Assembly: GCA_027028505.1 (NCBI GenBank)
Contig: JALVJE010000015.1
Location: 1 to 45,527 of the forward strand
DNA length: 45,527 nt
Direction of reading: 5' to 3'
Source: Bacteroidales bacterium
GTDB taxonomy: Bacteria > Bacteroidota > Bacteroidia > Bacteroidales > VadinHA17
The translations under genes were made by a program, and so were the position numbers. The notes beneath the pieces were generated by a model. That model saw only the letters and a program-made list of their open reading frames with translations, ran no database searches and had not been told where the DNA came from. Positions 11,625-13,691 of this stretch are shown here, in pieces (the stretch's first letter is position 1; each line of letters begins with the position of its first letter).

Positions 11625-12665
11625 ATGAACCTTTTGTGGGCGGCGCTGGCGGTATTTGTGTTGAACGTACCTTTCGGGTACTGGCGGGAGCATGTACCGA
11701 AGCTGTCGGCGCAGTGGTTCCTGGCGATCCATATTCCTGTGCCTTTCGTTATCGCCATGCGGTTTCTTTTCCGTCTGGGCTTTCAGCTGTACACCTATCC
11801 CGCGATGGTCGGCGCCTTTTTCTTCGGTCAGTGGTTCGGAGGCTGGCTGTACAAACGGCTGGCCGGGAAATACCTGCTCTCCGGAAATATGCTGCGTGAT
11901 CTTTTGCTTATCCCGGTACGGAGTGAGAAAGTAAAGAAAAAACCGGTCCTGATCCTGAAGGCCGGCAACACCTATCCTAAGATCGTATGGGAGTATGGTG
12001 ATTTCGAGGACTGGATCCATGCCAAACTGTTCCGCAGGGAGCCGCTGGAGGTACTGGAGGTGTTCCGTGACGAGGCGGAGATGCCCGATCCCACCCACTA
12101 TGCCGGCTTCATCATCACCGGCTCGCACGACGATGTCACCGATCATGCGCCATGGGTGGAGCGGCTGGCAGGATATGTGATGTACCTGATGGAACGTGGG
12201 CTGCCGGTGCTGGGCATCTGCTTCGGTCATCAGTTGCTGGCATACGCCGGCGGCGGCAGCGTGAAGGACCACCCCGGTGGGCAGGAGCTGGGTACCGTGA
12301 CCATCCGGCGCACGGAAGGGACAAAAAAAGACCCGCTCCTCCGGGGCCTGCCCAGGTCGTTCCCGGCCCATGTCAACCATGCCCAGACCGTAGAGCGTCT
12401 GCCGGAGGGGGCCGTCGTGCTGGCTTACAACGATTTTGAGAAAACCCACGCCTTCCGTCTGGGAGAGCAGGCCTGGGGCGTGCAGTTCCACCCCGAATAC
12501 ACGGGTGACATCATGCGGGCCCAGATACGGGAACAGTATGACGCCGTGAAGAAAAGCGGCCGTGACCCGGAGAAATTGCTGCAGGAGGTATCGGACAAAG
12601 ACCACGGCAGGCTGGTGCTGAGGAATTTTGTGAGGATCTGCCGGAATAAGGAGCGAAGTAAGTAG
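11625..12665 (+). CDS. Membrane domain fused to class I glutamine amidotransferase (GMP-synthase-like GATase1)
   Basis: About 90-aa hydrophobic N-terminus, then GATase1 with ILGICFGHQ-type nucleophile (VLGICFGHQLLAYAGGG) and GVQFHPEYT. Confidence 0.85.
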   Translation: MNLLWAALAVFVLNVPFGYWREHVPKLSAQWFLAIHIPVPFVIAMRFLFRLGFQLYTYPAMVGAFFFGQWFGGWLYKRLAGKYLLSGNMLRDLLLIPVRSEKVKKKPVLILKAGNTYPKIVWEYGDFEDWIHAKLFRREPLEVLEVFRDEAEMPDPTHYAGFIITGSHDDVTDHAPWVERLAGYVMYLMERGLPVLGICFGHQLLAYAGGGSVKDHPGGQELGTVTIRRTEGTKKDPLLRGLPRSFPAHVNHAQTVERLPEGAVVLAYNDFEKTHAFRLGEQAWGVQFHPEYTGDIMRAQIREQYDAVKKSGRDPEKLLQEVSDKDHGRLVLRNFVRICRNKERSK

Positions 12666-12789
12666 GTCGAACGGTCAAAAGTCCAAGGGTCGAAAAGTGG
12701 AAAAAGTATGAAGAGTGGGAAGAGTGTGAAGAGTCAGCGATGAGCAGTGAGCGATGAGAGATGAGTCCTTCGGTACGCCTGCGGCTACT

Positions 12790-12975
12790 CAGGAACCGGC
12801 CTTGAGAAGCCCCGAAGGGGCGTAAGCAACCAGGATCGGGCGTAGCCCGATCATCATTGGTACAATAATTCCATAGCCCTGTAAGGGCGAAAGCAAAAGA
12901 TGAGATTGCCGACCCCAGCGGGGTCGTAGTCAGGTAGCCGCAGTTACGTCTGCGGTTAAAGGCATGTCCACCACA
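12790..12975. repeat. REP-like hairpin cluster
   Basis: Successive hairpins gccccgaaggggc, gatcgggcgtagcccgatc, gccctgtaagggc, gaccccagcggggtc, ccgcagttacgtctgcgg. Confidence 0.85.
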
Positions 12976-13180
12976 CCCAACCCCAGCGAGTTTGAAGAAA
13001 GAAGTAGGTCGAACGGTCAAAAGTCCAAGGGTCGAAAAGTGGAAAAAGTATGAAGAGTGGGAAGAGTGGAAAGAGTCAGCAATGAGCGATGAGCAATGAG
13101 CGATGAGTCAACCCAACTTTTAACTTTAGCGCATTTTAACTTTTAACTCCTCTCAACTCCACACTCTAAGTACTCCACAT

Positions 13181-13280
13181 GCCGCAAATCTCCGATTTGC
13201 GAGCATCCCCGCCCGGACGACCGTCCGTTCGGACGGGCTCGTCACTCTAACGAGATTGAAAATCTCGAGAGTGACGGGAC
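13181..13280. repeat. Two-hairpin scaffold element A
   Basis: CGCAAATC-tcc-GATTTGCG / GAGCATCC [30-nt palindromic insert] TCG / CGTCACTCTaaCGAGATTgaaAATCTCGAGAGTGACG / GGAC. Confidence 0.85.
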
Positions 13281-13295
13281 TCCACACTTCTAATA

Positions 13296-13352
13296 TAGGT
13301 ATTTAAATACCTATTTAATTACCTATTTAAAAACCTATTTAAATAGGTATTT
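13296..13352. repeat. AT-rich palindromic array, copy 2
   Basis: tataggtatttaaatacctatttaattacctatttaaaaacctatttaaataggta; matches 1066-1125. Confidence 0.85.
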
Positions 13353-13405
13353 CTTTGCGTGCGGCGATTTAAAGATCCGGCCTACAACCCCCTGGAACAT
13401 GAAAT

Positions 13406-13493
13406 GCCGAAATGATCAAAATCTTTGATTTTGTAATCATTTCGAGCATCCTCGAAAAACAACGAAAATCGAAGATTTTCTGTTTTCGGGACC
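13406..13493. repeat. Two-hairpin scaffold element B
   Basis: CGAAATGATcaaaatctttgattttgtaATCATTTCG / AGCATCCTCG / CGAAAA...CGAAAATCgaaGATTTTC..TTTTCG / GGACC. Confidence 0.85.
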
Positions 13494-13614
13494 TGAAACC
13501 TGGAACCTGAAACAATTCAGACCTAAAACGCAGCCGCAGGCTGCATCAAACCTCAAACACAGCCGTAGGCTGTATCAAACTTCAAACCACAAACGCGCCG
13601 CAGGCGCCTCAAAT

Positions 13615-13691
13615 CCCGTAAAACTGCAACTGCAGTTTTACGAGGATCCTCGCAATTCTAACGAGATCATTGATCTCGAGAATTGCGGGAC
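13615..13691. repeat. Two-hairpin scaffold element C
   Basis: CGTAAAACTGCAacTGCAGTTTTACG / AGGATCCTCG / CGCAATTCTaaCGAGATCattGATCTCGAGAATTGCG / GGACC. Confidence 0.85.

What the first reader, a model, noticed from the sequence alone, without database searches (positions are those of the whole stretch)
13181..13691. Three adjacent two-hairpin elements with one scaffold and completely different, self-complementary stems
Elements A (13181-13280), B (13406-13493) and C (13615-13691) share CCG-stem1-CGAG[C/G]ATCC-TCG-stem2-(inner stem)-CGGGAC. Stem 1 is CGCAAATC, CGAAATGAT(CAAAATC) and CGTAAAACTGCA respectively; the outer stem 2 is CGTCACTCT, CGAAAA and CGCAATTCT, each matched by its exact complement. 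Linkers are conserved while both arms change together. Within a 0.5-kb stretch this implies either selection on structure or a copying process that re-templates both arms; conceptually like attC sites but without their boxes.
Basis: seen in the sequence. Interest (0 to 1): 0.78.

Follow-up and report, generated by a model that had tools for sequence, protein, structure and literature searches.

The report
Mobile double-hairpin DNA with variable stems
The three odd patches are copies of a small (about 55-100 base) jumping-DNA-like element that keeps the shape of two hairpins while its stem letters change freely; about a hundred copies lie in this genome and relatives occur in distant bacterial phyla, often wedged into broken tRNA gene copies, and no mobilising enzyme could be identified.

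Summary
Observation confirmed and extended. A (13180-13279), B (13405-13491) and C (13614-13690) are two-hairpin elements: T[C/G]CCG-stem1-CGAG[G/C]A | TCCTCG-stem2-CGGGA. Each hairpin has a 3-bp foot, one bulged A/T and a CG clamp; long forms add 7 bp, a 2-nt bulge and 7 bp. The centre occurs 72+65 times in this genome (reversed control 1+1). 84 distinct 44-nt halves, chosen on their ends only, are 94% Watson-Crick at 14 variable pairs (55% with arms swapped), without G·T excess. Copies sit exactly between heptamers of degenerate 7-bp arrays (junction R^Y in 55/55) or, in other genera and in Patescibacteria, exactly in the D- or T-loop of partial tRNA copies beside the intact tRNA, with no target duplication. 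B and C are 97-98% identical to copies elsewhere, so the three are separate subfamily members, not one element re-templated locally. A sister species has a different element at A's place and lacks B and C. Best reading: a non-autonomous, structure-defined mobile palindrome (REPIN-/mitochondrial-DHE-like) moved in trans by an unidentified enzyme. Y1 transposase, reverse transcriptase, integron integrase and GIY-YIG genes do not track it.

The parts
13180..13279 (+). Element A: TGCCG-type left hairpin, GC-rich insert, right hairpin ending CGGGA
13180..13205 (+). A hairpin 1 (TGCCGCAAATC..GATTTGCGAGCA, short form)
13209..13238 (+). GC-rich third hairpin CCGCCCGGA..TCGGACGGGC nested in A; an independent insert, also found in other copies and in a tRNA fragment (L056)
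13239..13279 (+). A hairpin 2 (outer stem CGTCACTCT, 2-nt bulge, inner stem CGAGATT)
13405..13491 (+). Element B: TGCCG-type hairpin 1 (13405-13448) plus hairpin 2 (13449-13491)
13614..13690 (+). Element C: TCCCG-type hairpin 1 (13614-13646) plus hairpin 2 (13647-13690); palindromic centre CGAGGATCCTCG 13641-13652
13384..13515 (.). degenerate heptamer array (cctggaa/cctgaaa) around B; flanks rejoin in phase when B is removed
13516..13613 (.). cctcaaa-type heptamer array left of C, holding three small variable hairpins (GCAGCCgcaGGCTGC etc.)
   Evidence: direct reading

Best explanation
A, B and C are members of a family of non-autonomous mobile DNA palindromes (double-hairpin elements). The mobile unit is an inverted pair of hairpins, each recognised by geometry (a 3-bp foot with one extrahelical base and a CG clamp) rather than by stem sequence. 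It inserts without target duplication at R^Y steps (mostly A^C/G^T), between units of 7-bp arrays and in D- or T-loops of redundant tRNA fragments. SHOWN: family size, scaffold, covariation, precise junctions, presence/absence between sister species, patchy cross-phylum distribution. INFERRED: that an active enzyme acts in trans on the folded single strand; that stems drift and are kept paired by structural selection and/or arm correction; that halves are exchanged between copies. The enzyme is unknown.
For: About 100 dispersed copies; 94% WC pairing with 3-4 pair types per position and no G·T excess; predicted fold; R^Y in 55/55 and 7-bp phase restored on removal; 22 of 169 composites split a partial tRNA whose intact twin next door shows the exact empty site; present/absent between sister species; same scaffold with other stems in Bacteroidota, Patescibacteria and Marinamargulisbacteria; 23 half families in 28 pairings.
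Against: No enzyme found that tracks the element. No movement observed directly; absence in the sister species could be loss. Between sister species whole arrays are replaced, so part of the spread could be recombination between arrays.
Confidence: 0.72

Rival explanations
1. It is a REPIN/BIME proper: each half is a REP and a RAYT (Y1 HUH transposase, TnpA_REP) moves it as folded ssDNA.
For: Inverted pair of bulged hairpins with a conserved foot, no target duplication. E. coli TnpA_REP needs a bulge in the REP stem and its upper stem is recognised non-specifically (PMC8266576). REPINs are inverted REP pairs (PMC3116915).
Against: The two complete Y1 genes of the own genome are flanked by another hairpin family. 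Y1_Tnp not found in 12 of 28 carrier genomes, including the amplified G044 and G057. In the own family G005 and G011 have elements without Y1, G006, G009 and G013 have Y1 without elements. REP stems are conserved in sequence; these are not.
Confidence: 0.2
2. It is one end of a tRNA-restoring homing unit with a GIY-YIG nuclease; solo elements are leftovers or derivatives of that unit.
For: In several genomes (L335, L347, L346/L143, L351) a small GIY-YIG gene lies between the element-bearing tRNA-Pro fragment and the intact tRNA-Pro; in L332 (tRNA-Ala) the arrangement is mirrored with the element in the T-loop.
Against: G040 (14 copies) and G001 have only long GIY-YIG proteins (UvrC-like lengths). 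Most copies in the own genome are in heptamer arrays without any gene. Several GIY-YIG/tRNA loci lack a recognisable element.
Confidence: 0.17
3. Folded-strand recombination by a tyrosine recombinase (integron- or Xer-like), the element acting like an attC site.
For: Extrahelical bases, variable stems, G^T junctions; Xer-type proteins occur in all ten genomes tested.
Against: attC-type boxes at both ends 0/56; a true integron integrase in only 1 of 10 carriers.
Confidence: 0.07
4. The hairpins are host regulatory or terminator structures kept for an RNA function.
For: C lies just beyond the 3' end of a gene in a convergent gap.
Against: Contexts are mixed: 23 co-directional, 13 convergent, 7 divergent. 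Not kept at orthologous sites. No G·T excess; no Rfam family at gathering score.
Confidence: 0.04

Closest known systems
Mitochondrial double-hairpin elements (DHE, Allomyces; Paquin et al. 2000, cited in PMC4478555 and PMC5910586) and yeast GC clusters (PMC4478555)
   Same: Small, two or more hairpins, dispersed, presence/absence variation, merging and shuffling of modules, no own gene
   Different: Mitochondrial, not bacterial; yeast GC clusters are flanked by short AG or ACT duplications; no homology tested
REPIN / BIME with RAYT (PMC3116915, PMC8266576)
   Same: Inverted pair of bulged hairpins, intergenic, about 100 copies, modular halves
   Different: No conserved stem, no GTAG tag, halves abut directly, no linked RAYT, tRNA-loop targets
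GTAG/CGTC-tagged REPs (PMC3733652)
   Same: Small palindromes across phyla; CGTC type also lacks a dedicated transposase
   Different: Stem sequence conserved within a family, unpaired tags; ours has a paired foot and free stems
Cyanobacterial small dispersed repeats (SDR; Elhai et al. 2008, from memory, paper not held)
   Same: Recalled: compensatory changes, location inside heptameric tandem arrays, nesting
   Different: Shorter (21-27 nt), cyanobacterial; not compared here
Integron attC sites
   Same: Works like: folded strand with extrahelical bases and variable stem
   Different: No R/L boxes, two hairpins instead of one, not linked to cassettes or IntI

Membership tests
REPIN/BIME with RAYT | Inverted pair of palindromic units, high copy, intergenic | tested here: met
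   47 of 57 composites outside crude ORF calls
REPIN/BIME with RAYT | Conserved REP stem sequence and GTAG-type tag | tested here: not met
   30 basal and 36 apical arms among 84 halves; foot is TCC/TGC
REPIN/BIME with RAYT | Y1 transposase flanked by the same repeats | tested here: not met
Integron attC | GTTRRRY/RYYYAAC boxes at both ends | tested here: not met
   0/56
Integron attC | IntI in the genome | tested here: not met
   1 of 10 carriers over cut-off; own genome none
Mitochondrial-type DHE | Two adjacent hairpins, pairing kept while sequence varies | tested here: met
Mitochondrial-type DHE | Common descent with organellar DHEs | not tested
   no mitochondrial sequences searched
Rfam family | Match at gathering score | tested here: not met
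Retroelement | Reverse transcriptase in carrier genomes | tested here: not met
   none found in G000, G001, G043, G054, G056, G057; drafts are incomplete
Active mobile element | Observed excision or insertion | not testable with these tools
   only comparative evidence

The most novel reading that the evidence does not exclude
A cross-phylum class of mobile DNA in which the recombinase reads only the shape of two DNA hairpins (foot, bulge, CG clamp) and inserts them precisely at R^Y in tRNA-loop sequences and heptamer arrays, possibly linked to tRNA-restoring GIY-YIG units: a transposition system with no sequence-conserved ends beyond about 5 bp.
Probability: 0.35. Interest if true: 0.87.

Novelty: new variant of a known kind. 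Interest (0 to 1): 0.74.

Why it matters
Known bacterial palindromic repeats keep their stem sequence. Here the sequence is free and the shape is kept, over at least two phyla, with natural empty sites (intact tRNAs) next to filled ones. That makes the question of how small palindromes move and stay paired directly testable, and a cultured type strain (Draconibacterium orientale) carries at least four copies, all sitting at tRNA D-arm-like sequences.

Tried and rejected
RAYT/Y1 as dedicated mobiliser. Reverse transcriptase. Integron integrase and attC boxes. Rfam families. Viral carriage: the single IMG/VR hit is GC-rich sequence that reads as a chance match without the paired stems. General targeting of hairpin loops: enriched outside G000 (0.50 versus 0.29), as expected from tRNA arms, but not in G000 (0.20 versus 0.21). 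Simple tandem duplication of leader plus tRNA 5' end: leaders are often unrelated while the tRNA part is identical. Chance: shuffles and reversed patterns give almost nothing. About a third of the scaffold readings of the genome scan (29 of 91) failed the strict stem test; many look like coding-sequence chance matches, some are imperfect true copies or nested readings.

Full report
WHAT IS THERE. The three elements are real. In exact form the scaffold is T[C/G]CCG-stem1-CGAG[G/C]A directly followed by T[C/G]CTCG-stem2-CGG[G/C]A. Each half is a hairpin: TCC pairs with GGA (or TGC with GCA), an A on the 3' side is bulged, then CG pairs with CG, then the variable stem. The second half is the reverse complement of such a unit. 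ssDNA folding draws exactly this for A, B and C, with z-scores -7.3, -6.2 and -10.2. Element A also holds a GC-rich hairpin (13209-13238) between its halves; the same insert sits at the same point in many other copies and in a tRNA fragment.

FAMILY SIZE. CGAGSATCCYCG occurs 72+65 times in the 3.38-Mb draft genome, the reversed control 1+1; palindromic centres count twice, so this is roughly 100-110 places. In 811 kb of fetched sequence 137 stem-checked halves were found against 4, 0 and 0 in shuffles, forming 56-57 directly abutting composites plus forms with the GC-rich insert. B is 98% and C 97% identical to elements elsewhere in the genome. Among 56 composites there are 23 half families in 28 pairings, so halves have been shuffled.

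STRUCTURE, NOT SEQUENCE. 84 distinct 44-nt halves from many genomes were collected on their ends alone. At the 14 variable pairs 94% are Watson-Crick, against 55% (maximum 61%) when 3' arms are dealt out anew and 22-39% when the partner is slid. Most pairs occur in three or four WC types; there are 30 basal and 36 apical arms. Mismatches are G·T 7 and A·C 14: the wobble excess expected under RNA selection is missing, which favours DNA-level pairing. Sequences from one genome are related, so the shuffles are not a formal probability.

WHERE IT SITS. In the own genome most copies lie in degenerate 7-bp arrays. Rejoining the flanks restores the 7-bp phase (identity 0.77 at lag 7 and offset 0; 0.20-0.38 at other offsets) and the junction is R^Y in 55/55. 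Half families prefer their own heptamer types (mutual information 3.08 versus 2.52, s.d. 0.05, when shuffled), so arrays and elements may disperse together. In an array a 7-bp target duplication cannot be told from the array itself; the tRNA sites below, where the empty site is known, show none.

tRNA LANDING SITES. In other genera of the family and in other phyla the same composite interrupts partial tRNA copies. Of 169 distinct composites 22 lie in a partial copy of the adjacent intact tRNA: 21 upstream with the junction in the D-arm region (tRNA nt 10-22), one downstream in the T-loop (nt 54). The identical segment often runs from about nt 1 to about nt 31, and the element end usually lies 25-66 nt from the intact gene. 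The own genome has one such site, at tRNA-fMet (L046). tRNAs without the element upstream had such a fragment in only 3 of 58 cases, but loci were fetched through the element, so this comparison is biased. In several genomes the space between the fragment and intact tRNA-Pro encodes a small GIY-YIG protein (Pfam PF01541, E 6.8e-17 for the one scanned), and in one genome the arrangement is mirrored at tRNA-Ala with the element in a T-loop. I read these as scars of tRNA-restoring insertion units, in whose orphan fragment the double hairpin landed or was left; which of the two is open.

TURNOVER AND DISTRIBUTION. In the sister species G001 (96% identical neighbouring protein) a different element with a different array stands at A's place and B and C are absent; at three further loci G000 has an element that G001 lacks. 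The own family is evidently Bacteroidales: locus L067 from same-family genome G023 matches the record titled Bacteroidales bacterium Prado084 scaffold_1. Yet 0 of 397 other Bacteroidota and only 5 of 384 Patescibacteria genomes drawn evenly have a full TCCCG-type composite: patchy, with local amplification (32 in G000, 14 in G040).

WHO MOVES IT. Unknown. Y1 transposase: the own complete genes are flanked by another hairpin family, not found in 12 of 28 carriers, no correlation in the family. Reverse transcriptase: none found in the own genome. Integron integrase: one of ten carriers. Stand-alone GIY-YIG: not found in G001 and G040. Draft completeness (85-100%, unknown for many) limits each single absence.

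VERDICT. A double-hairpin mobile palindrome family: new variant of a known kind (small non-autonomous palindromic repeats), unusual because only the shape is conserved, because it spans phyla and because tRNA neighbours preserve the empty site. Novelty rests on nine searches of an open-access library only, which found no description of this scaffold.

Noticed in passing
L335, L347, L346, L351, L332, L329: Small GIY-YIG genes lie between a tRNA fragment and the intact tRNA (Pro, Ala), like tRNA-restoring homing units; in Draconibacterium (L329) the fragment carries what looks like a decayed double hairpin.
   Followed up: partly
L026 (C165) and L027 (C75); related hairpins at window 12806-12950: RAYT-like Y1 transposase genes flanked by a separate hairpin family (AGCCCCGAAGGGGC / CCCCTCCGGGG), also present in the window; a sub-threshold Rfam Acido-Lenti-1 match overlaps at 12808-12852.
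   Followed up: partly
window 13516-13613: Small 13-15 nt hairpins with variable stems (GCAGCCgcaGGCTGC, GCGCCgcaGGCGC) sit in phase inside the cctcaaa heptamer array: possibly another structure-only repeat.
   Followed up: no
window 13209-13238; L333:1350-1470 and 1745-1830: GC-rich hairpin CCGCCCGGAYGA..TCGGACGGGC is an independent dispersed insert, nested in double-hairpin elements and tandemly repeated beside a GIY-YIG gene.
   Followed up: partly
window 13288-13359: 12-bp tandem array with internal palindromes (TATTTAAATACC); it is shared with the sister species where the neighbouring repeats are not.
   Followed up: no
window 12655-12767 and 12997-13109: 113-nt direct repeat, 92% identical, in the same intergenic region.
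   Followed up: no
L184, L190, L192 (Magasanikbacteria): Elements lie within copies of a GTCATTACGAG... repeat that resembles a CGTC-type REP.
   Followed up: no
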